A program made the position numbers and the translations under genes. Under the pieces are notes generated by a model. It searched no databases. It was not told where the DNA came from and saw only the letters and a program-made list of their open reading frames with translations. 64,000 nucleotides of DNA from Luteibacter sp. dw_328 (lineage in GTDB: Bacteria; Pseudomonadota; Gammaproteobacteria; Xanthomonadales; Rhodanobacteraceae), in contig NZ_JAAVUW010000002.1 of assembly GCF_018449605.1 (NCBI RefSeq), positions 434,001-498,000 of the forward strand. The letters are read 5' to 3'. Every line of letters begins with the position of its first letter. The first letter of the stretch is position 1. Below, in pieces: positions 44,717-54,377 of this stretch.

Positions 44717-44952
44717 GACGGGTATTCCTGGAAGAGAAGCGGGAGGTGGAAATCTCTTCGGTCGGGCGCCTTTGAAAGGGCGCTCCGTTCCGATGGGATG
44801 ACTATCCTCCCGGCCCCCCAGGCCCGGTAGCCGTTGGTTTTGGCTAAGACCTATCCGGTTTCAGCATGGGCGTTCCGGACCCTCTTTGCGGCCGGACCGC
44901 ACCCTGCCTATACTCGCTTCGGCGCCGGGGGGCGCCCAGGGGGTTTCAGGGA

Positions 44953-45456
44953 ATGGATGACAATTTCTACGCCGCGCCGCGGGCAGAGCTCGAGCCACCG
45001 CGGTCGCTGGCGGACCGGCGGGCGAACAAGGCCACGCGGGGGGCGCGTCTCGCCGCCGTCCTTATCGATGGCGTCGTCCTGTTCGTGCTGGTGGCGATCA
45101 CCGCACTGGCGGGGGGAGTGGGCCGTGGCGTCAACGAGGGGCGGGTCTCCGCGCTCCCAGGCATCATCGTCTTCGGCGTGTTCGGCCTCGCCTTGCTCAT
45201 CGGCAATATCGTCCTGCTTTCACGCTTCGGCCAGACCCTGGGCAAGCGTGCCATGAGCATCGCGATCGTTCGCACAGACGGTAGCCGATGCGACCTGTGG
45301 CGCATCCTGGTCCTGCGGATCTTCGTGGTGCGTGCGGTCGCCTTCGTCCCTGTGGTCGGGCCCATGCTTAATCTCGTGGACATGCTGATGATTTTCGGCG
45401 ACGAACGGCGCTGCGCGCACGATTACATGGCCGACACCATCGTCGTCCACCTCTGA
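44953..45456 (+). CDS. RDD family membrane protein (1 of 3)
   Basis: A 167-residue inner membrane protein. The opening MDDNFYAAPRAELEPP is a short proline-rich tail shared with the next gene; then the RDD domain follows: ARLAAVLIDGVVLFVLVAI, IVFGVFGLALLIGNIVLL, GQTLGKRAMSIAIVRTDG and a C-terminal RRCAHDYMADTIVV. RDD proteins are of unclear function; some exchange Na+/H+. First gene of an eight-gene operon; the ATG at 44953 is preceded by CAGGGA. Confidence 0.85.
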   Translation: MDDNFYAAPRAELEPPRSLADRRANKATRGARLAAVLIDGVVLFVLVAITALAGGVGRGVNEGRVSALPGIIVFGVFGLALLIGNIVLLSRFGQTLGKRAMSIAIVRTDGSRCDLWRILVLRIFVVRAVAFVPVVGPMLNLVDMLMIFGDERRCAHDYMADTIVVHL

Positions 45457-45475
45457 CTTTCACCCGGCAGGACTC

Positions 45476-45967
45476 ATGCAAATGGACAGCAATCCGTACG
45501 CCGCTCCTCAATCCGAGCTTGAAACCCACGCCGCCACGCCAGCCAGTCTCGAACGCGCCAAGGCCAGTCGTGGCCAACGTTTCGGCGCTGCCTTCCTCGA
45601 TGGCATCTTCAGCACCATCTGCCTCGCCCCATGGACCTATTCCATGAAGAGCGGAGGCATGACGCGTAGCGCGGCCCTGCTTGGCTTCGGTCTCCTGGTC
45701 GTGCTCTGCATCATCAACCTTGTGCTGTTGAGCAAAAACGGCCAGACACTCGGCAAGAAGATCGTGGGCACCAAGGTGGTCATGGCCGACGGCTCGCCGG
45801 CTCCGCTGTGGCGCATCGTGGTTCTGCGCTGGCTGCCACTGACGGCGGTGTCGATGATTCCCAAGGTGGGCATCGCCGTGGCACTGGTCGATGCCTGCGT
45901 GATCTTCGCCAGTGAGCGCCGCTGCGGCCACGACTACGTCGCCGGCACCATCGTCGTCGACGCCTGA
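45476..45967 (+). CDS. RDD family membrane protein (2 of 3)
   Basis: A 163-residue RDD protein, paralogous to the one 19 bp upstream: SNPYAAPQSELE tail, RFGAAFLDGIFSTICLAP, GQTLGKKIVGTKVVMADG, and RRCGHDYVAGTIVV at the end. A second ATG six bases in (45482) is an equally good start. The TGA overlaps the ATG of the third RDD gene (TGATG). Confidence 0.85.
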   Translation: MQMDSNPYAAPQSELETHAATPASLERAKASRGQRFGAAFLDGIFSTICLAPWTYSMKSGGMTRSAALLGFGLLVVLCIINLVLLSKNGQTLGKKIVGTKVVMADGSPAPLWRIVVLRWLPLTAVSMIPKVGIAVALVDACVIFASERRCGHDYVAGTIVVDA

Positions 45968-46647
45968 TGCTCGATACGGTTCGCCAGATCGAGACGCCGG
46001 AAGGCGTCTCGCTCCGCTTGCACGCGGCCGGGGCGACGGCGCGTGCGCATGCGTGGCTTATCGACTTCGCCCTGCGTGCGCTCGCTGCCTTCTTCCTGCT
46101 GGCCGTGCTCGGCATGTTGGGCTCTGCGGGCGCCGGCCTGGGCATGCTGGTGCTGTTCGCGGCGTTCTGGATTTACGGCGTTGCCTGCGAGGTCTGGATG
46201 GATGGGCAGACGGTGGGCAAGCGCATGATGAACCTGCGCGTGGTGAATGCGGACGGCACGCCCGTGACGCTGCTGCCCTCGGTCATTCGCAACCTGCTGC
46301 GTACGGTCGATGCCCTCCCGGGCATCTATGGCATCGGTCTCGTCTGTTGCCTGATCGATCCCTACAGTCGCCGCATTGGAGACATCGTGGCAGGCACGAT
46401 GGTGATCCACGTGCTACAGCGTGGCGCCCTGGGCCAGATACCGAACGAGCCGGCTGAACCACCGTCGACGCCCTTGCGCCTGGAAGAACAGGAAGCCCTC
46501 GTGGCCTTTGCCGAGCGTGGCCGTAACCTGCATGAAGCGCGGCAACGCGAACTGGGCGACCTGCTGGAGCCGCTCACCGGGCGCATGGGCAATGCCGGGC
46601 TGCGCAAGCTGCTGGCGCATGCCAACTGGCTGCTGGGGCGCCCATGA
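45967..46647 (+). CDS. RDD family membrane protein (3 of 3)
   Basis: A 226-residue RDD protein with a different layout: it opens QIETPEGVSLRLHAAGATAR (no proline-rich tail), has LIDFALRALAAFFLLAVLG and GQTVGKRMMNLRVVNADG, and continues into a 70-residue cytoplasmic C-terminal helix region (LEEQEALVAFAERGRNLHEA). This form is the one normally found next to SpoIIM and MoxR genes. ATGA overlap with the next gene. Confidence 0.87.
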   Translation: MLDTVRQIETPEGVSLRLHAAGATARAHAWLIDFALRALAAFFLLAVLGMLGSAGAGLGMLVLFAAFWIYGVACEVWMDGQTVGKRMMNLRVVNADGTPVTLLPSVIRNLLRTVDALPGIYGIGLVCCLIDPYSRRIGDIVAGTMVIHVLQRGALGQIPNEPAEPPSTPLRLEEQEALVAFAERGRNLHEARQRELGDLLEPLTGRMGNAGLRKLLAHANWLLGRP

Positions 46648-47621
46648 AACAAGAGCGGTTCGTGGCTTTGCACGATGCGGGCTGGTCGGAAGTGGAGAGC
46701 TGGATGCGCGGTAGTGGTCGCCAGGCGTGGTCGTCGGCGCTGGCGGAGCAGGGACTGGATTTCCCGAGCCAGTACCGTCGCATCTGCCAGCACCTGGCCA
46801 TGGCTCGTGCCCGTGGCTACAGCCACGACGTGACGGACCGCTTGCAGCGCATCGTGGATCGGGGCCATCGTTTGCTCTATCGCCCGCCGGCGCCGCGCTG
46901 GCACCGTATCGGCGAGTTCATCGTCGCGGGATTCCCACGCCTTGTCCGTCGCGAGTGGAAGGCGATGGTCATTGCCGCTGCGCTGCTGTACCTGCCGACC
47001 CTCATCTGCCTGCTGTTGATTCACTTCCGGCCTGACGTGGCCGGCATGATTTTCAGCGGGCAGGCGCTGGACCGGTTCGAGCAGATGTACAACCCGACGC
47101 GCGACAGGATGGGTCGTACCAGCGGCACGGACGTGGCGATGTTCGGCTTCTACGTGCTCAACAACGTCGGCATCGCTTTTCGCACCTTCGCGGCAGGTCT
47201 GTTCTTCGGCGTCGGAGCGATCTACGTGCTGGTGACCAACGGGATCATGTTCGGAGGCATCGCGGGTCACCTGGATGCGATCGGCTACGGTGGCCCGTTC
47301 TGGCGCTTCGTCGCCGCGCATTCGTCGTTTGAACTCACCGCTATCGTCATCGCCGGCGGCGCCGGCTTGCGCCTGGGCTACACGCTGCTGGCGCCCGGTC
47401 GCATGCGCCGTGGCGATGCGTTGCGCGAGGCCGGTGGCGTGGGTGCACAACTGGTACTCGGTGCCTTCCTCATGCTGGTGGTCGCCGCCTTCATCGAGGC
47501 GTTCTGGTCGTCCGTGGCGGCGTTTCCGGACGTCGTTAAGTTTGGCAGTGCCGCGCTGCTCTGGTTACTCGTCATCGCGTGGCTGGCTTTCGGTGGCCGC
47601 AGGAGGCGCAGTGGAGATTGA
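46644..47621 (+). CDS. SpoIIM-family (stage II sporulation protein M-like) membrane protein
   Basis: A 325-residue inner membrane protein. A 100-residue cytoplasmic helical region is followed by five to six hydrophobic segments; FGFYVLNNVGIAFRTFAAGL and IFGVGAIYVLVTNGIMFGG-type sequence with HSSFELTAIVIAGGAGLRLG are diagnostic of SpoIIM (DUF95). The species does not sporulate; in Gram-negatives this family travels with MoxR/DUF58 operons of unknown cell-envelope function. Coupled to both neighbours; its 3' end overlaps the next gene by 11 bp. Confidence 0.88.
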   Translation: MKQERFVALHDAGWSEVESWMRGSGRQAWSSALAEQGLDFPSQYRRICQHLAMARARGYSHDVTDRLQRIVDRGHRLLYRPPAPRWHRIGEFIVAGFPRLVRREWKAMVIAAALLYLPTLICLLLIHFRPDVAGMIFSGQALDRFEQMYNPTRDRMGRTSGTDVAMFGFYVLNNVGIAFRTFAAGLFFGVGAIYVLVTNGIMFGGIAGHLDAIGYGGPFWRFVAAHSSFELTAIVIAGGAGLRLGYTLLAPGRMRRGDALREAGGVGAQLVLGAFLMLVVAAFIEAFWSSVAAFPDVVKFGSAALLWLLVIAWLAFGGRRRRSGD

Positions 47622-49125
47622 GCGTATCTCCGTCGTGCTGCGCCCGCGCAGTACCCGTGAATCCGCCGACCTCGGCGCAGCGATGCTCCGTCGTCACGCG
47701 CAGCCGATCTTCACGGCATGGTTCATCGCGTCGCTTCCGTTCCTCGCGATAGCCATCGGCCTGGCACTGTGGCTGGGACAGCCTTGGGTGTCATTGCTGT
47801 TTCTCTGGTGGCTGAAGCCCTTGTTCGCGCGCATTCCGCTCTACGTCGTTTCACGGGCGGTGTTCGCGGAGGCACCCGGCTGGCGCGATGCCTTGCGCAG
47901 CATGCGTACGTGGGGCCTGCAAGGCTTGCTGGCCTGGATGACGATTCGTCGCCTCGATCCGCGGCGCTGCGTCTTGCAACCCATCGTTTACCTCGAAGGT
48001 CTGGACCGCCGCGCACGCGCCGAGCGCTGGCGTGTGTTCGGCCGTGGCGTCGAGGGTCCCGGTACGGGGCTCGCGTTGACCTGCATGATGTTCGAGTGGG
48101 TGTTGGCACTTAGCCCGTTGCTGTTCCTGCCGATGTTCGTGCCCGCCGAGCTGTGGGAGTCGTACTGGTTCAACGCGGGTTTTTTGCGAACGATGCCCCA
48201 TTGGCTTTCCCTTCCGCTTGTCGTGGCGTACTACCTCGGCATGTCGGTCGCCGAGCCGCTGTGTACGACCGGCGGCTTCGCGCTCTATCTCGGCCGCCGC
48301 ACCGAGCTCGAAGCGTGGGACCTGGACCTCGCGTTCCGCCGGTTGCGTAACCGCCTGTTGGCCACCGCGACGACCGCGCTCGTTCTGATGGCCGCGTGTT
48401 TCGTCGCGCCCACGGCGCATGCCGCCGACACGCCGCGAGACGTCAAAACCGATGCGGTCCGCGTGTCGCTGGATTCGGCGTTTCCCGCGCCGCAGCAGGG
48501 CGCCGACCAGCGGATGAACGACGTGTCGGGCAAGGTGCTGGCCGATCCCTTGCTTGGTGGCAAGACGCAGGCCTGGCGCTGGGTACCGAAGCATCCGGCT
48601 GCCCGTAAACCTGCAGAAATCGTCCCGGAGAAACCGATCGTGCCGGGCGACGTCGCCGGGGCCGGTGTGGCCTCGAAGGGACTTCTCATCGCATTACTGA
48701 TCGCCGCCCTCGCATGGTTGGGGTGGTTCGCCCGGCAACGCTGGCCCTCGCGCCGGGGTGAGCCGGCGGCGGCTCGCGCGCCGGTGCAGAGTGCCGTGCA
48801 GGAAACGGACATGGTGGTGGCCGTGCCAAAGGGCTTCGGCGAGCAGGTGCACCAGCTTTGGCGGTCGGGTTCGCGTCGGGAAGCGCTGGCGCTGCTTTAT
48901 CGCGGCACCGTGGAGCGCGTGGCGACGCGGCTCGACGAGCCAGTGTCGCCGGATGCCACCGAAGCGGACGCCATCGCCGGTGCGCGCCGCCTCGATGACG
49001 ACGACGCGGGCCGCCGGGCCATTCGTATCGTGCGGACCTGGCAATTCGCGGCCTACGCGGATCGTTATCCTTCTGATGAGGAAATGGCCGTCATGCTCGG
49101 CGGTTGGCCGGTGGAGCACGTATGA
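47611..49125 (+). CDS. Multi-helix membrane protein with C-terminal DUF4129 domain
   Basis: A 504-residue inner membrane protein. Four to five helices in the first 260 residues (e.g. FLAIAIGLALWLGQPWVSLL, LSLPLVVAYYLGMSVAEPL), a processing-like hydrophobic stretch, a periplasmic middle (about residues 280-360), another helix (LLIALLIAALAWLGWFA), and a cytoplasmic DUF4129 domain with LWRSGSRREALALLYRGTVE. GTG start at 47611 with a perfect AGGAGG 4 nt before it, inside the end of the SpoIIM gene. DUF4129 proteins occur with MoxR/DUF58 and transglutaminase genes. Confidence 0.83.
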   Translation: MEIERISVVLRPRSTRESADLGAAMLRRHAQPIFTAWFIASLPFLAIAIGLALWLGQPWVSLLFLWWLKPLFARIPLYVVSRAVFAEAPGWRDALRSMRTWGLQGLLAWMTIRRLDPRRCVLQPIVYLEGLDRRARAERWRVFGRGVEGPGTGLALTCMMFEWVLALSPLLFLPMFVPAELWESYWFNAGFLRTMPHWLSLPLVVAYYLGMSVAEPLCTTGGFALYLGRRTELEAWDLDLAFRRLRNRLLATATTALVLMAACFVAPTAHAADTPRDVKTDAVRVSLDSAFPAPQQGADQRMNDVSGKVLADPLLGGKTQAWRWVPKHPAARKPAEIVPEKPIVPGDVAGAGVASKGLLIALLIAALAWLGWFARQRWPSRRGEPAAARAPVQSAVQETDMVVAVPKGFGEQVHQLWRSGSRREALALLYRGTVERVATRLDEPVSPDATEADAIAGARRLDDDDAGRRAIRIVRTWQFAAYADRYPSDEEMAVMLGGWPVEHV

Positions 49126-50207
49126 GCAGGGGTAATGCATGGGCACTGGCCATTGCGGCGCTCGTACTGCTATGCGTTGGAACATTCCTCAGCACGTTCG
49201 AGCACAAGGAAGTCGACGTGGACGTGCCACCCTCCGGCAAGGCGGCAACCAATCGCTTTTACGCCCTGGAGCGCACGATGCGCGGCATGGGTATTCCGGC
49301 GCATTCAGTCAGTGGCATGCCATCAGGCGATGACTCGCTGGTGGTGATGGGGGTGAATCCGGCCAACCTGGATCGCGACGACGCCGAAGATCTGCTTTCG
49401 CTTGCGGATGACGGAGCAACGGTCGTGTTGCGCACCGGCTCGGACGCGGAGATGGCCCGCGCCTTTTTCTGGAAAAGCCTGAGCAAGGCCGTCGGTCTCG
49501 CGCCGGCAGGTACCGGCTGCCTGGACGTTCAGGGGCTCGCCGGTGAGAAGTCCTACTCGTGGTGCGGTATGCGCGTGAAGCTGCGTGCCGCTGCCCGCGT
49601 CGATGGACTCGGCGATGCGAAGGGTGACCTGATGGTGACGTTCCGTTACGGCGACGGTACGATCACCCTCGTGCCGTCGCTGGATCCTTTCAGCGGTCGT
49701 GGCTTCGAAGACCCTGTGGCACGTCGCCTGCTGGTGCGCGTGCTGCATCTGGACGACCACGAACAATCCGCCGCGCTGGTGTACCGCGTGGACGGCGATC
49801 GCATCTGGAGCCTGCTGTTCACTCGCGGCTGGCCGGCCATGCTTGCGTTCGCCCTGTTGCTGGCAGCGTGGGCGGTATCGCGCGCCGTGCGTCTCGGCCC
49901 GCTGCTGGACACCCCGCGTGCGGATCGCCGTGCCCTTGTGGAGCACGTGCAGGCCGCTGGCGAATTCCTTTACCGACGTGACCGCGGCCGTGGTTTGCAT
50001 GCGCGTGTCTGCGCCGGTGTGCTTTCCCGTGCACGGCGGCTGGGTCCCGGTGCCGACGACCTCGAGGGCGAGTCGCTCCACGTTCGCCTGGCCGAGCGCT
50101 TCGATGAGGCTCCCGCGGACGTTGCGCGGGCATTCCGGCCTCCCGTCGACGCCAATGCGTTTCGCGACAGCATCGCCATTCTTTCCCGATTGCGGAGACA
50201 TCCATGA
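49122..50207 (+). CDS. DUF4350 domain membrane protein
   Basis: A 361-residue protein: N-terminal helix (WALAIAALVLLCVGTFLSTF), a periplasmic DUF4350 domain (FYALERTMRGMGIPAHSV, LLSLADDGATVVLRTG) with two cysteines, a second helix (WPAMLAFALLLAAWAVSRAV) and a cytoplasmic helical tail. The DUF4350 fold resembles a GATase/Rossmann domain without catalytic residues. ATGA overlaps join it to DUF4129 and to MoxR. Confidence 0.85.
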   Translation: MSRGNAWALAIAALVLLCVGTFLSTFEHKEVDVDVPPSGKAATNRFYALERTMRGMGIPAHSVSGMPSGDDSLVVMGVNPANLDRDDAEDLLSLADDGATVVLRTGSDAEMARAFFWKSLSKAVGLAPAGTGCLDVQGLAGEKSYSWCGMRVKLRAAARVDGLGDAKGDLMVTFRYGDGTITLVPSLDPFSGRGFEDPVARRLLVRVLHLDDHEQSAALVYRVDGDRIWSLLFTRGWPAMLAFALLLAAWAVSRAVRLGPLLDTPRADRRALVEHVQAAGEFLYRRDRGRGLHARVCAGVLSRARRLGPGADDLEGESLHVRLAERFDEAPADVARAFRPPVDANAFRDSIAILSRLRRHP

Positions 50208-51211
50208 ACACGTCCGTCGACACCCCGCGCGAAGCCGCGCCCCCGATCACCTTCACACCGACGGAGGTCGCCGCACGCATCGCCGCGCTGCGCAGCCAGG
50301 TGGGTCGTGCGTTCATCGGCCAGCAGCCGGTCTTCGAACAGGTACTGTTGGCCTTGCTCGCCGCCGGTCATGTGCTGATCGAGGGCGTGCCTGGCCTGGG
50401 CAAGACCTTACTGGTGCGCGCCCTTGCCGGTGCCGTGGGGTGCAGCTTCGGCCGCGTGCAGTTCACTCCCGACCTGATGCCTACCGATGTCACCGGCCAC
50501 GCCGTGTACGACATGAAGGCCGAGCGCTTCCAGATTCGTCGCGGCCCGGTGTTCGCGAACCTGCTCCTGGCCGACGAAATCAATCGTGCGCCGGCCAAGA
50601 CACAGGCGGCGTTACTCGAAGCGATGCAGGAAAACCAGGTCACGATCGAAGGTCGGCGTTTCCCGTTGCCGCAGCCCTTCATGGTGGTCGCTACGCAGAA
50701 TCCGATCGAACAGGAAGGTACCTACGCGCTACCCGAAGCGCAGCTGGACCGCTTCCTGGTGAAGGTGCAGATCGAATACCCGACGCTGGCCGACGAAACA
50801 CGCATGGTGACCGAGGTGCTGGACGGGCAGGTCGCCGCGGACCTGGACGTGTCGCGCGTATCGCCTGTGATGAATGAGGCGGAGCTGATGGCCATCCAGC
50901 GGATGGTGGCCGCCCTGCGCGTGGATCATGAAGTGGTGGATTACGCCGTGCGGATCGCACGTGCCACGCGTGAGTGGTCGGGCGTGCTTGCCGGTGCCGG
51001 TCCACGCGGTGGCCTGGCACTCGTGCGTCTGGCCCGCGCCGCCGCGCTGGTGGACGGCCGCGACTTCGTCACGCCGGACGACGTGCGCAGCGTGGCGATT
51101 CCCGCGTTGCGCCACCGCCTTCTGCTGGCCCCCGAGGCGTTGATCGATGGCCAGCATGCCGAAGACATCCTGAAGGGCCTGCTGCACAAAGTCGCCGCGC
51201 CGCGCCGATGA
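50204..51211 (+). CDS. MoxR-family AAA+ ATPase
   Basis: A 335-residue AAA+ chaperone-like ATPase. GVPGLGKTLLVRALAG is Walker A (about residue 65), LLADEINRAPAKTQAALLEAM is Walker B with the pore region, and FMVVATQNPIEQEGTY the sensor 1 motif, all standard for MoxR. MoxR proteins help load metals or activate von Willebrand factor A-type partners such as DUF58 proteins, the next gene product. ATGA overlap on both sides. Confidence 0.95.
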   Translation: MNTSVDTPREAAPPITFTPTEVAARIAALRSQVGRAFIGQQPVFEQVLLALLAAGHVLIEGVPGLGKTLLVRALAGAVGCSFGRVQFTPDLMPTDVTGHAVYDMKAERFQIRRGPVFANLLLADEINRAPAKTQAALLEAMQENQVTIEGRRFPLPQPFMVVATQNPIEQEGTYALPEAQLDRFLVKVQIEYPTLADETRMVTEVLDGQVAADLDVSRVSPVMNEAELMAIQRMVAALRVDHEVVDYAVRIARATREWSGVLAGAGPRGGLALVRLARAAALVDGRDFVTPDDVRSVAIPALRHRLLLAPEALIDGQHAEDILKGLLHKVAAPRR

Positions 51212-52518
51212 TTCGTCCCGCTGCCGCCATGCTGTCATTGATCGGCGTCTGGTTCGCCGCGGGCGTGCTGGTGTCGATCGAGCTGTTGCCGCTGTCGTGG
51301 TGGGCCATGCTTGGCGCACTGTGCGCCATCGTGATGCTAGGCGACGTGTTTCGCCTGGGCCGCCAGGCCTCGCCCGAACTGACTCGCGAACTCGATGCCG
51401 TGTTGCCGTTGGGTGAGCGTCTCGACGTGACGCTACGCCTGCGCCACGCGGGCAAGCGCAAGCGTCGCGTACGCATCCACGACATGCATCCCGGTGGCTG
51501 GCGCGTCGAGGGTCTGCCGCGCACGGTCGACCTCGCGCCGTCGCGCGAACTGAATTTCTCGTATGCGCTATGGCCGGCTTCCCGAGGCAAGTTCGCCTTC
51601 GACGGCTGCCAGGTGGAACTGACCTCACCCTGGCGCTTGTGGCACCAACGCCGCACGCTGGATGTCACGGCGGATGTACGCGTGTTTCCGAATTTCGCGC
51701 CGCTCGCGCGTATGGCTGGCCTTAGCGTGGAACTGGCGTCGCGCTCGGTAGGCGCGCGGCTGCAACGCCGGCGCGGCGAAGGTACGGAATTCCAGGAACT
51801 GCGCGATTACCGCGTGGGCGACAGCCTGCGCAAGGTGGACTGGAAAGCCACCGCGCGGGCGGGCCGCCTGATGTCGCGCCAGTACCGCGACGAGAGCCAC
51901 CAGCAGGTCGTGCTGATGCTGGACTGCGGTCGTCGCATGCTGGCCGAAGACGACGGCGTGGGCCACTTCGACCAGGTACTCAACGCATCGCTCGCCCTGG
52001 CCTACATCGCGCTTCGCCAGGGCGACAGCGTAGGGTTGCTCGCCTGCGCGGGTGAGAACACACGCTGGTTGGCGCCGCAACAGGGTGCCGGCGGCATGGA
52101 CATGCTGTTGGGCGCCGGTTACGACCTGCGCGCCGAATCCACGCCCACCGACTACCTCCACGCGGCCAGCGAGCTGCAGACACGCCAGCGAAGGCGCGCA
52201 CTGGTCGTTCTGGTGACCAATGTGCGCGACGAAGACGACGAGGAGCTACGCGCGGCGGTGAAAATGATGTCGCGCCGGCACCTGGTCATGGTGGTGAGCC
52301 TGCGAGAAATGGCACTGGATCGCGCGGCGACCGGCGATACAGACAGCCTGGAAGCCGCCATCCGGACAGCCGGTGCGCTGCGCTACCTTGACCAACGGGA
52401 CGCGGTACATGCGCGTTTGCGACGGGAAGGTATTGCCACGCTGGATGTACTCGCCAGCGAGTTGTCCGGCAGGCTGGTGGAGCGGTATCTGGCGATCAAG
52501 CGGGCAGGGCGACTCTGA
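51208..52518 (+). CDS. DUF58 domain protein
   Basis: A 436-residue protein with two N-terminal helices (AAAMLSLIGVWFAAGVLVSI, LLPLSWWAMLGALCAIVML) and a DUF58 domain: GEGTEFQELRDYRVGDSLRK and VDWKATARAGRLMSRQY are signature sequence, leading into a von Willebrand A-like fold (QVVLMLDCGRRM with the DxxxR variation). Working partner of the MoxR ATPase. Last gene of the operon; 122 bp separate it from the borosin locus. Confidence 0.93.
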   Translation: MIRPAAAMLSLIGVWFAAGVLVSIELLPLSWWAMLGALCAIVMLGDVFRLGRQASPELTRELDAVLPLGERLDVTLRLRHAGKRKRRVRIHDMHPGGWRVEGLPRTVDLAPSRELNFSYALWPASRGKFAFDGCQVELTSPWRLWHQRRTLDVTADVRVFPNFAPLARMAGLSVELASRSVGARLQRRRGEGTEFQELRDYRVGDSLRKVDWKATARAGRLMSRQYRDESHQQVVLMLDCGRRMLAEDDGVGHFDQVLNASLALAYIALRQGDSVGLLACAGENTRWLAPQQGAGGMDMLLGAGYDLRAESTPTDYLHAASELQTRQRRRALVVLVTNVRDEDDEELRAAVKMMSRRHLVMVVSLREMALDRAATGDTDSLEAAIRTAGALRYLDQRDAVHARLRREGIATLDVLASELSGRLVERYLAIKRAGRL

Positions 52519-52640
52519 AGCTTCCCGACGCTTCTTTCATCCCGAGGACATTCCTGAGAAGCTAGTGAGTAGGACGGCCTTCCGCTATCACATCGGGCAG
52601 GGGCGTCCGTATGACGAAAACACCAACCAGGGGAAAGGAT

Positions 52641-52871
52641 ATGCGCGATACCGTCGAACTGCTCGAGGCCATTGGCCGCGATGCCACCTTGCGCCGCGCC
52701 TCGCCCGAGGTCCTTTCGCGCTTACTCGAAACCACCCATGCCTCGCCTGGCCTGCGGGAGCTGGTCGCCCATGGCGACAGCACCATGCTCGCGAATGAAC
52801 TGGGTCTCGTGGAGAGATATGTCGAGCACATGGTCCAGACAGGCGCGCATGAGGATTCGCTTCTCAACTGA
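52641..52871 (+). CDS. Borosin-type RiPP precursor, copy 1
   Basis: A 76-residue protein with no signal peptide. Residues 1-25 (MRDTVELLEAIGRDA...) are identical to the two copies at 53849 and 54147. Residues about 1-55 are a helical domain with an IGRDATLR segment and a GDSTMLANELG turn, the pattern of the borosin binding domain of SonA (xLGxDAxL ... GDxxxL). The C-terminal tail YVEHMVQTGAHEDSLLN would be the core that is modified. ATG at 52641 follows GGGGAAAGG; an ATG at 52611 lacks a Shine-Dalgarno. The methyltransferase gene starts 95 bp downstream. The family assignment is inference from pattern and position. Confidence 0.72.
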   Translation: MRDTVELLEAIGRDATLRRASPEVLSRLLETTHASPGLRELVAHGDSTMLANELGLVERYVEHMVQTGAHEDSLLN

Positions 52872-52966
52872 GCGACCGGTACCTGCCTGATTTTTCCCCC
52901 GAGTCGTCGGATTGCCGCCCTGGCAAGTCGTCGCTTGTCATATTCGACTTTGCATACTATGGCCCT

Positions 52967-53812
52967 ATGAACACACCCACGACTGTTTCGACCGACGCCC
53001 CGCGCGGCAGCATCACCTCCGTAGGCATGGGCATCACCCTGGGTTCGCACCTGACGCCGATCGCGCGCAACTATATCGAGACCGCTGACGTCGTCTTCGC
53101 CGCGCTCTCGGACCACGTGGTGGAACTCTGGCTGCAACGCCTGAATCCCGAAGTCCGTAGCCTCCAGCCTTACTACAAGCCCGGCAAGTCGCGCATGAAG
53201 ACCTATCGTGAATGGGTCGAGGTGATGATGACCGAGGTGCGGGCAGGCAAGCGCGTATGCGCCGTCTTCTACGGCCACCCCGGCATCTTTGCCTGGTCGC
53301 CGCATAAGGTCATCGAGGTTGCTCGCGCCGAAGGCTACGAGGCTTACATGGAGCCCGGTATTTCCGCCGAAGACTGCCTGTACGCCGATCTCGGTATCGA
53401 TCCGGCGCGCTTCGGCTGCCAGCATCTCGAGGCGAGCCAGCTGCTCTTCTTCGAGCGCAGCCTGGATACGACCGGTCATGTGATCCTCTGGCAGCTCGGC
53501 GTCGTCGGTGACCGCTCGCTCGGCCGCTTCCGCACGCCCGACGCATACCGGGAACTGCTGACGGAGCGCCTGTGCCTGGACTATCCGGCCGATCACGAGG
53601 TGATCGTCTATCGCGCGCCGACACTGCCGATCGAAGGGCCGCACATCCAGCACGTGAAACTGCGTGACTTCGTTTCCGCCGAGTACACGGGCCACGAGAC
53701 GCTCGTCATCCCGCCTGCGCAGGCGCTGAAGCCAAATGCCGTCTGGCGTGCGCGCCTCGATGCGCTCGATGCCATCCATGGCTCGGGTGTCGAGCCGGCC
53801 GTTACAGCGTAA
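52967..53812 (+). CDS. Borosin-type peptide backbone N-methyltransferase (SonM/OphMA-like)
   Basis: A 281-residue SAM-dependent enzyme of the tetrapyrrole methylase fold: SVGMGITLGSHLT at the N-terminus, FYGHPGIFAWSPHK and EPGISAEDCLYADLGID are SAM-site motifs. It is not a cobalamin or siroheme enzyme: the spacing Arg76-x3-Tyr80 then Tyr102 (22 residues later) equals the catalytic Arg72/Tyr76/Tyr98 of OphMA, and sequence such as YIETADVVFAAL, LWLQRLNPEV and HLEASQLLFFE closely follows SonM of Shewanella. OphMA carries its own substrate at the C-terminus; this one ends at Ala281 without a core, so it must act in trans, on the three small proteins flanking it. It would methylate backbone amides. 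Confidence 0.85.
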   Translation: MNTPTTVSTDAPRGSITSVGMGITLGSHLTPIARNYIETADVVFAALSDHVVELWLQRLNPEVRSLQPYYKPGKSRMKTYREWVEVMMTEVRAGKRVCAVFYGHPGIFAWSPHKVIEVARAEGYEAYMEPGISAEDCLYADLGIDPARFGCQHLEASQLLFFERSLDTTGHVILWQLGVVGDRSLGRFRTPDAYRELLTERLCLDYPADHEVIVYRAPTLPIEGPHIQHVKLRDFVSAEYTGHETLVIPPAQALKPNAVWRARLDALDAIHGSGVEPAVTA

Positions 53813-53848
53813 GTGCCAACCAACCTAACCAACCATCAGGGGAAGAAC

Positions 53849-54082
53849 ATGCGCGATACCGTCGAATTGCTGGAAGCCATTGGGCGTGACGCCACCTTGC
53901 GTCGTGCATCACCCGAAGTGCTGGCACGCACACTCGAGGCTATTCATGCCTCGCCAGCACTGCTTGAACTGGTCGCTCACGGCGACGTCACCGCCCTGAC
54001 AGGGGAACTGGGTCTGACGGACAAATACGTCGAGCACCGGAGCCAGACGGCGCATGAGGATGAAGATTCTCTCTTCAACTGA
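53849..54082 (+). CDS. Borosin-type RiPP precursor, copy 2
   Basis: A 77-residue paralogue of copies 1 and 3, 36 bp after the methyltransferase stop. The first 25 residues are identical to the others; residues 26-55 vary (LARTLEAIHASPALLELV); the tail is YVEHRSQTAHEDEDSLFN, with an extra acidic pair and SLFN in place of SLLN. ATG at 53849 with AGGGGAAG upstream; the longer frame to 53813 is rejected. It is probably co-transcribed with the methyltransferase and copy 3. Confidence 0.72.
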   Translation: MRDTVELLEAIGRDATLRRASPEVLARTLEAIHASPALLELVAHGDVTALTGELGLTDKYVEHRSQTAHEDEDSLFN

Positions 54083-54146
54083 GAGAACGTCGGTCTGGTC
54101 CTCGACCGAGGCCAGCCAAGATAAACAAACCAACGAAGGGAATAAC

Positions 54147-54377
54147 ATGCGCGATACCGTCGAACTGCTTGAGGCCATTGGCCGCGATGCCACGTTGCGT
54201 CGTGCCTCGCCCGAGGTACTGGTGCGTGCGCTCGAGGCTACGCATGCTTCGCGTGGACTGCTCGAACTGGTCGCCAACGGCGACAATGCGACGCTCGCGA
54301 GCGAGCTGGGTCTGACCGACAGATATGTCGAGCACCAGAGCCAGACAGGCGCGCATGAAGATTCGCTCCTGAACTAG
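54147..54377 (+). CDS. Borosin-type RiPP precursor, copy 3
   Basis: A 76-residue paralogue, 64 bp after copy 2. Shares the 25-residue N-terminus and the NGDNATLASELGLTD turn; tail YVEHQSQTGAHEDSLLN, closer to copy 1. ATG at 54147, GAAGGG upstream; the frame is open to 54054 but the added residues come from the copy 2 region and are not coding. A hairpin at 54408-54428 follows. Confidence 0.72.
   Translation: MRDTVELLEAIGRDATLRRASPEVLVRALEATHASRGLLELVANGDNATLASELGLTDRYVEHQSQTGAHEDSLLN

What the first reader, a model, noticed from the sequence alone, without database searches (positions are those of the whole stretch)
52641..54377. Candidate split borosin RiPP locus: one trans-acting backbone N-methyltransferase, three precursors
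The enzyme (52967-53812) has the tetrapyrrole-methylase fold with the Arg76/Tyr80/Tyr102 spacing of OphMA's catalytic Arg72/Tyr76/Tyr98, and reads closely like SonM. It has no core peptide at its C-terminus. Three 76-77 residue paralogues around it share a 25-residue N-terminus and a DAxL ... GDxxxL ... LG pattern like the borosin binding domain of SonA, and end in different tails. A borosin with three separate substrates in one locus, in this kind of bacterium, would be new to me. The methylated residues, protease and exporter are not visible.
Basis: partly seen in the sequence, partly recalled or inferred. Interest (0 to 1): 0.9.

Follow-up and report, generated by a model that had tools for sequence, protein, structure and literature searches.

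The report
Three-substrate peptide-methylating gene locus
A Luteibacter bacterium carries an enzyme gene of the borosin family, whose members methylate peptide backbones, beside three near-copies of its likely peptide substrate; in related bacteria a single substrate gene usually sits next to a signalling-enzyme gene that this locus lacks, which hints at what bacterial borosins may be for.

Summary
Gene 52967-53812 encodes a split-borosin backbone N-methyltransferase (best solved-structure match SonM; all four probed active-site residues present). Three paralogous 76-77-residue proteins beside it are its likely substrates; only family profiles, not single sequences, link them to SonA.

The surroundings matter more. 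In 58 of 63 enzyme loci compared, a GGDEF (diguanylate cyclase) gene with weak TPR similarity accompanies enzyme and precursor. The precursor next to it has a long acidic tail in 65 of 71 cases; precursors not next to it do in 1 of 33. The window locus and its counterpart in one relative lack both cyclase and tail and have three precursors; this genome has 13 precursors in all.

Verdict: a new variant of split borosin, apparently a derivative of a borosin-cyclase module. Methylation and any link to c-di-GMP are inferred.

The parts
52641..52871 (+). P1: precursor 1, 76 aa, short (tail-less) form
   Evidence: ORF; family HMM; identical residues 1-25 with P2 and P3
52806..52868 (+). P1 residues 56-76: predicted linker and core, ...VEHMVQTGAHEDSLLN
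   Evidence: Gapless alignment of the family profile to SonA 1-64; conserved EH..QT; methylation inferred
52872..52966 (.). Gap between P1 and enzyme; at this place L065 (flanks 88-89% identical) has the GGDEF cyclase gene
   Evidence: blastn collinearity, HMM table
52967..53812 (+). Backbone N-methyltransferase of the SonM/OphMA branch, 281 aa
   Evidence: PDB search, Pfam, four active-site residues in 85 of 85
53849..54082 (+). P2: precursor 2, 77 aa, short form
   Evidence: As P1; pairs with P2 of L064 in the tree, support 0.975
54014..54079 (+). P2 residues 56-77: predicted linker and core, ...VEHRSQTAHEDEDSLFN
   Evidence: As for P1
54147..54377 (+). P3: precursor 3, 76 aa, short form
   Evidence: As P1
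54312..54374 (+). P3 residues 56-76: predicted linker and core, ...VEHQSQTGAHEDSLLN
   Evidence: As for P1

Best explanation
The locus is a split (enzyme and precursor apart) borosin system. The enzyme, as a SAM-dependent homodimer, binds the N-terminal helical domain of each of three paralogous precursors and methylates backbone nitrogens in the C-terminal stretch E62-H63-x-S/V65-Q66-T67; in the gapless register with SonA (methylated at L63 and I65) the first sites would be H63 and S/V65. It derives from the common Luteibacter arrangement of enzyme, one acidic-tailed precursor and a membrane GGDEF cyclase: cyclase and tail are gone, the precursor is triplicated, and the short form has a conserved ...L(L/F)N end. 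In the ancestral form the methylated peptide or protein most likely acts on the sensor part of its neighbour cyclase (inferred from gene neighbourhood only); here the products are uncoupled from it. Shown by sequence: gene content, homology, conserved residues, selection, absence of the cyclase relative to relatives. Inferred: methylation and its sites, binding mode, dimerisation, release of a product, function.
For: SonM top PDB hit E 9e-67, OphMA 2e-47. The four SonM residues tested by mutation in PMC8429565 are identical in 85 of 85 aligned enzymes. A profile of 60 precursors, five SonA-like and 17 other rows of the 82 left out, has SonA as first PDB hit, E 0.0015, gapless 1-64; with all 82 rows E 8e-11. 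A precursor-family gene lies in 60 of 63 enzyme loci of the own and unnamed-relative set. Codons 2-70 of the three paralogues: omega 0.17-0.25. 24 of 24 fetched short homologues keep the core motif and end. Cyclase absent in window and L064 but present at the same site in L065, flanks 88-89% identical; the own genome's only two matches to that cyclase (E 1e-30) lie at its other two borosin loci.
Against: A single window precursor does not find SonA in the PDB (P1) and P1-P3 hit no Pfam family above cut-off; a profile of the 19 window-clade precursors alone does not find SonA. Only 3 of 82 precursors match Pfam LigA. The core is polar, whereas the review passage read speaks of primarily hydrophobic cores in the 11 pairs tested. 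Codons 56-70 of P1 versus P3 show 7 nonsynonymous against 2 synonymous changes. No structure of enzyme or complex could be predicted.
Confidence: 0.78

Rival explanations
1. The small proteins are binding or regulatory partners, and the true methylation substrate is something else (another protein or a small molecule); the helical domain only caps or targets the enzyme.
For: The domain of SonA has structural relatives that cap dioxygenases (PMC8429565); no methylation can be shown here; the polar core is unusual for what I read; 14 loci pair precursor and cyclase with no enzyme nearby.
Against: The C-terminal EHx[STV]QT stretch behind the domain is conserved in 24 of 24 short homologues and in register with the methylated SonA core; SonM and SonA relatives are proven enzyme and substrate (PMC8429565).
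Confidence: 0.1
2. The three precursors are redundant copies giving more of one product (gene dosage) rather than three different products.
For: Cores differ at few positions; the C-terminal motif is kept in all; P1 and P3 are not separated from their G010 counterparts in the tree.
Against: P2 is a separate lineage shared with G010 (support 0.975) with its own end QTAH(E/D)DEDSLFN; long divergence with silent sites near saturation.
Confidence: 0.35
3. The cyclase is only a frequent passenger: its neighbourhood reflects co-inheritance in this order, and the acidic tail has to do with expression or stability, not with the cyclase.
For: SonA-like precursors next to a cyclase lack the tail, and L098/L063 have proline-rich ends; loci share ancestry, so counts are not independent; 12 of 66 related cyclases in Luteibacter lie away from any detected precursor, one of them beside a methylase.
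Against: Gene pairing recurs in other families of the phylum (10 of 14 loci) and a different nucleotide cyclase takes the place in L060; within 8 of 8 multi-precursor loci with one cyclase the adjacent copy has the most acidic tail.
Confidence: 0.4
4. An ordinary tetrapyrrole methylase with unrelated small neighbours.
For: Same fold and Pfam family; database names such as precorrin-6B methylase.
Against: NCBIfam cobalamin and siroheme models score far below their cut-offs; SonM and OphMA are closer by 40 orders of magnitude and more; conserved precursor neighbour.
Confidence: 0.02

Closest known systems
SonM/SonA, type IV split borosin of Shewanella oneidensis (PMC8429565; outline, part 1 of 4 of the Results, the kinetics section and searched passages read)
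   Same: Separate methylase and roughly 70-residue precursor; all four probed active-site residues; precursor family aligns gapless to SonA 1-64. Enzymes of L145 and L146 are 67-69% identical to SonM and have precursor and cyclase beside them.
   Different: Three precursors; core EHxSQT in place of YLVIS; stretch between Y70 and R76 three residues shorter; 281 against 263 aa.
OphMA, fused fungal borosin
   Same: Methylase domain and catalytic residues.
   Different: Core fused to the enzyme there, separate and triplicated here.
'Class 3' borosins of PMC11395268 (domain and core in one protein, methyltransferase apart; sections 3, 5, 9 and the legends read)
   Same: Same split of genes; the legend of its Figure 1 explains a GGDEF domain among the architectures drawn.
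   Different: Figures are not held, so I cannot say which type bears GGDEF; the window locus has none.
RcbAB of Vibrio vulnificus (PMC12282931; outline and abstract read)
   Same: A TPR-GGDEF protein whose activity is controlled by the partner gene of its operon: a model for the relatives' module.
   Different: RcbA is itself a TPR protein; the abstract mentions no methylase or borosin precursor.

Membership tests
Split borosin (type IV as defined in PMC8429565) | Methyltransferase and precursor encoded separately | tested here: met
   Genes 52641, 53849, 54147 apart from 52967; definition read
Split borosin (type IV as defined in PMC8429565) | Methylase of the OphMA/SonM branch | tested here: met
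   SonM E 9e-67, OphMA 2e-47
Split borosin (type IV as defined in PMC8429565) | Equivalents of SonM Y58/R67/Y71/Y93 | tested here: met
   Y70/R76/Y80/Y102; 85 of 85 aligned enzymes
Split borosin (type IV as defined in PMC8429565) | Precursor with borosin-binding domain (five-helix bundle) | tested here: inconclusive
   Family profiles find SonA first (E 8e-11; E 0.0015); window-clade profile and single sequence do not; fold not predicted
Split borosin (type IV as defined in PMC8429565) | Backbone alpha-N-methylation of the core | not testable with these tools
   Needs co-expression and mass spectrometry
Borosin types V to X | Type-specific architecture and core composition | not tested
   The three DOIs that I recalled for the split-borosin papers are not held; no type number beyond the split definition is claimed
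Borosin-cyclase module of Lysobacterales (described here) | GGDEF cyclase gene in the locus | tested here: not met
   Absent in the window; present in 58 of 63 enzyme loci
Cobalamin and siroheme methylases | NCBIfam cut-off scores | tested here: not met
   YabN 38.6 bits against 525; precorrin and siroheme models 11-20 bits against 93-400

The most novel reading that the evidence does not exclude
Backbone N-methylation is a signalling modification: the methylated precursor, or a peptide cut from it, is the ligand of the neighbouring membrane GGDEF cyclase, and its acidic tail addresses that cyclase. Strains such as this one have escaped the link in the window locus and expanded tail-less precursors (13 precursors in this genome, 18 in a relative) into a set of free signals or competitors.
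Probability: 0.28. Interest if true: 0.87.

Novelty: new variant of a known kind. Interest (0 to 1): 0.62.

Why it matters
In the passages I read, no biological role is given for bacterial split borosins. The pattern seen here, an acidic-tailed precursor beside a GGDEF cyclase and tail-less extra copies away from it, makes a role in c-di-GMP signalling directly testable. The window locus is a natural experiment: cyclase and tail are missing while enzyme and three precursors are kept under selection. For chemistry, one enzyme beside three natural substrates (7 and 11 at related loci) is a ready set for learning what split borosin enzymes accept.

Tried and rejected
Searches with the single precursors in Pfam, NCBIfam, PHROGs and (P1 only) the PDB gave nothing useful. 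Pfam LigA was hit by 3 of 82 precursors. A profile of the 19 window-clade precursors did not reach SonA, so the binding-domain claim rests on the wider family. Promoter and terminator scans found about what shuffled sequence gives (0 against 0.8; 2 against 1.3), and Rfam nothing. The enzyme tree does not resolve G000, G006 and G010 (support 0.48); a flank gene groups G000 with G006 (0.84) while precursors (0.99) and gene order group G000 with G010. Whether the cyclase was lost once or twice, or the cassette was exchanged, is open. The first neighbour clustering picked some wrong-strand ORFs and was replaced by HMM searches. The first tail count (63 of 72 against 0 of 32) treated one L090 gene as adjacent and mis-scored L112, L113 and L116; the recount, with a different threshold, is the one used. 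Rejected: ordinary tetrapyrrole methylase.

Full report
What is there. Four genes on the + strand: P1 52641-52871, enzyme 52967-53812, P2 53849-54082, P3 54147-54377, with gaps of 95, 36 and 64 bp. By my own reading of the ORFs (no family search) MoxR- and DUF58-like genes lie upstream and a TonB-dependent receptor and a glycosidase downstream. The host is a Luteibacter: the four closest named loci, 80-92% identical in the enzyme, are Luteibacter records, the next are Dyella. The genome has 5.05 Mb in 21 contigs.

The enzyme. Pfam TP_methylase, E 2e-20. PDB by sequence: SonM E 9e-67, dbOphM and OphMA 2e-48 to 2e-47, precorrin-2 methylase 2e-5. SonM Y58, R67, Y71 and Y93, whose mutation lowered catalytic efficiency from 1.6-fold (Y93F) to 98-fold (Y71F) in PMC8429565 (kinetics section), correspond to Y70, R76, Y80 and Y102 and are identical in 85 of 85 aligned enzymes. 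The stretch between Y70 and R76 is three residues shorter than in SonM. A protein search gave 6367 relatives at E 1e-3; among the 120 listed, the source names shown are of the kind 'SAM-dependent methyltransferase' or 'precorrin-6B methylase 1', none 'borosin'.

The precursors. P1-P3 are identical over residues 1-25 although codons 2-25 carry about 6-13 synonymous changes. Over codons 2-70 omega is 0.17-0.25; in codons 56-70 it is higher, and P1 versus P3 has 7 nonsynonymous against 2 synonymous changes. Across eight single-copy orthologues the core codons 62-67 are about as constrained (pN/pS 0.16) as the leader (0.22). In 19 window-clade precursors E62, H63 and T67 are invariant. The link to SonA is made by family profiles: 82 rows, E 8e-11; 60 of those rows, with five SonA-like and 17 other rows left out, E 0.0015, gapless 1-64. 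The 19-row window clade alone fails, as does P1 alone. In that register SonA L63 and I65 fall on H63 and S/V65.

Two forms of precursor. A search with P3 gave 105 proteins. I fetched 26: 24 of 76-81 aa (the window's own three among them; one listed 51-aa protein was left out) and two longer ones. All 24 contain EHx[STV]QT and end in [LF][LF][NS]; 23 end in N. The two longer ones have the same core followed by an acidic tail. Window and L064 genes are of the short form.

The missing third gene. Neighbour clustering and then HMM searches showed a gene of about 600 aa with a GGDEF domain: Pfam GGDEF E 5e-41 to 6e-36 in 8 of 8 scanned, but TPR models at cut-off in only 2 of the 8, below cut-off in 3, none in 3. 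GGEEF is present in 87 of 88; a crude hydropathy scan finds one to three hydrophobic stretches, usually one shortly before the GGDEF domain, so a membrane sensor with an outer N-terminal part is inferred. In 77 loci (3 own, 60 fetched around all other enzyme hits, 14 fetched because they hold a precursor), 63 hold an enzyme and 58 of these the cyclase too; the 14 precursor-only loci all hold it, but no enzyme within the fetched stretch. The five enzyme loci without it are the window, L064, L106, L123 and L088. The enzyme itself is uncommon outside the order: 4 of 274 class genomes and 13 of 349 phylum genomes at E 1e-40, own genome included in both. Of the 14 new places from those surveys, 10 have a cyclase next to the enzyme, one on the other strand and two with weak scores; 4 have none. 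In a Hyphomonadaceae record the place is taken by a protein with class III cyclase, AAA and TPR matches. From the cyclase side: 66 matches in 23 Luteibacter genomes, 49 within 600 bp of a precursor, 5 behind another cyclase of such a locus, 12 elsewhere, one of these beside a methylase (L091). The own genome has two at E 1e-30, both at its other borosin loci.

Loss at this locus. Window and L065 are collinear on both sides (88-89% DNA identity). L065 has precursor, cyclase, enzyme; the window has P1, enzyme, P2, P3 and no cyclase. Window and L064 share the arrangement and their six precursors form one group (0.99). A flank gene groups the window with L065 instead (0.84), and identities of the receptor gene do not decide (91.9, 90.4, 91.8%). 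The history is not settled.

Tail and cyclase. Counting an acidic tail as at least 6 D/E in a 15-residue stretch after the core, 65 of 71 cyclase-adjacent precursors have one, and 1 of 33 others (L076, just at the threshold) in the own and unnamed set; in the named set, which overlaps it, 14 of 18 and 0 of 3. Genes are not independent, so I looked within loci: in 8 of 8 loci with two or more precursors and one cyclase the adjacent copy has the most acidic tail (L012, L013, L054, L076, L078, L084, L090, L102). Against a general rule: SonA-like and other precursors beside a cyclase have no such tail (L120-L122, L145-L149, L061, L062), L098 and L063 have proline-rich ends, L129 just misses the threshold, and in L140-L153 only 3 of 8 adjacent precursors are acidic.

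Copy number. 129 of 197 family genomes have a precursor at E 1e-6 (at most 26 candidates scored per genome). This genome has 13, G010 18, no other more than 5. The array at C21 has 7, that of G010 11 plus a fragment.

How it most likely works. Shown: gene content, homology, active-site residues, selection on the precursors, absence of the cyclase. From PMC8429565: SonM dimers bind the helical leader of SonA and methylate its core from N to C. Inferred: P1-P3 are bound and methylated in the same way, first at H63 and S/V65. A role of the ancestral form in c-di-GMP signalling is inferred from gene neighbourhood; TPR domains often bind peptides (general knowledge), and RcbAB shows a TPR-GGDEF protein controlled by an operon partner (abstract).

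What is known. Split borosins are described as widespread in bacteria, types IV to X (PMC11285071, passages). The legend of Figure 1 of PMC11395268 explains a GGDEF domain among borosin architectures, so some link to GGDEF is in print; which type, I could not see. In the held library, borosin with Luteibacter, with diguanylate cyclase and with c-di-GMP gave no paper, and with GGDEF only PMC11395268. Key split-borosin papers are not held, so this says little about the full literature.

Verdict. The finding is real and correctly assigned to split borosins. It is not a first in this kind of bacterium, and the three predicted cores are near-variants. Its interest lies in the comparison with relatives: a tail-less, cyclase-less, multi-precursor derivative of a conserved borosin-cyclase module.

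Noticed in passing
L012:10823-13079 (own genome, C21): Seven tandem precursor genes behind one borosin methylase; six lack an acidic tail and the seventh, next to the cyclase, has it. L084 (G010) has 11 plus a fragment in the same arrangement.
   Followed up: partly
L013:7359-7649 and L102:5593-5901: Precursors whose core region repeats (FVALMPP/FSAALMPA/FSVALMAP; FRAVQMVTA/FHGALMISD/FQASQILTD), with 24-bp and 27-bp tandem DNA repeats in the region: possible multi-core precursors.
   Followed up: partly
L124-L137: Fourteen loci in 13 genomes with precursor and cyclase but no methylase in the fetched stretch; each of the 13 genomes has a methylase elsewhere.
   Followed up: partly
L060:3223-5994: Between precursor and methylase a class III cyclase-AAA-TPR protein instead of a GGDEF protein.
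   Followed up: partly
L106:6758-7027: Another Luteibacter locus without adjacent cyclase; its precursor has a non-acidic end.
   Followed up: partly
L076:5652-8223: Two methylase-precursor cassettes in tandem ahead of one cyclase.
   Followed up: no
window 44867-52622: About 7.8 kb upstream of P1 has no blastn match in L064, where the sequence to its left continues almost directly into P1; L065 matches its second half from 49296 on, where the L065 stretch begins.
   Followed up: no
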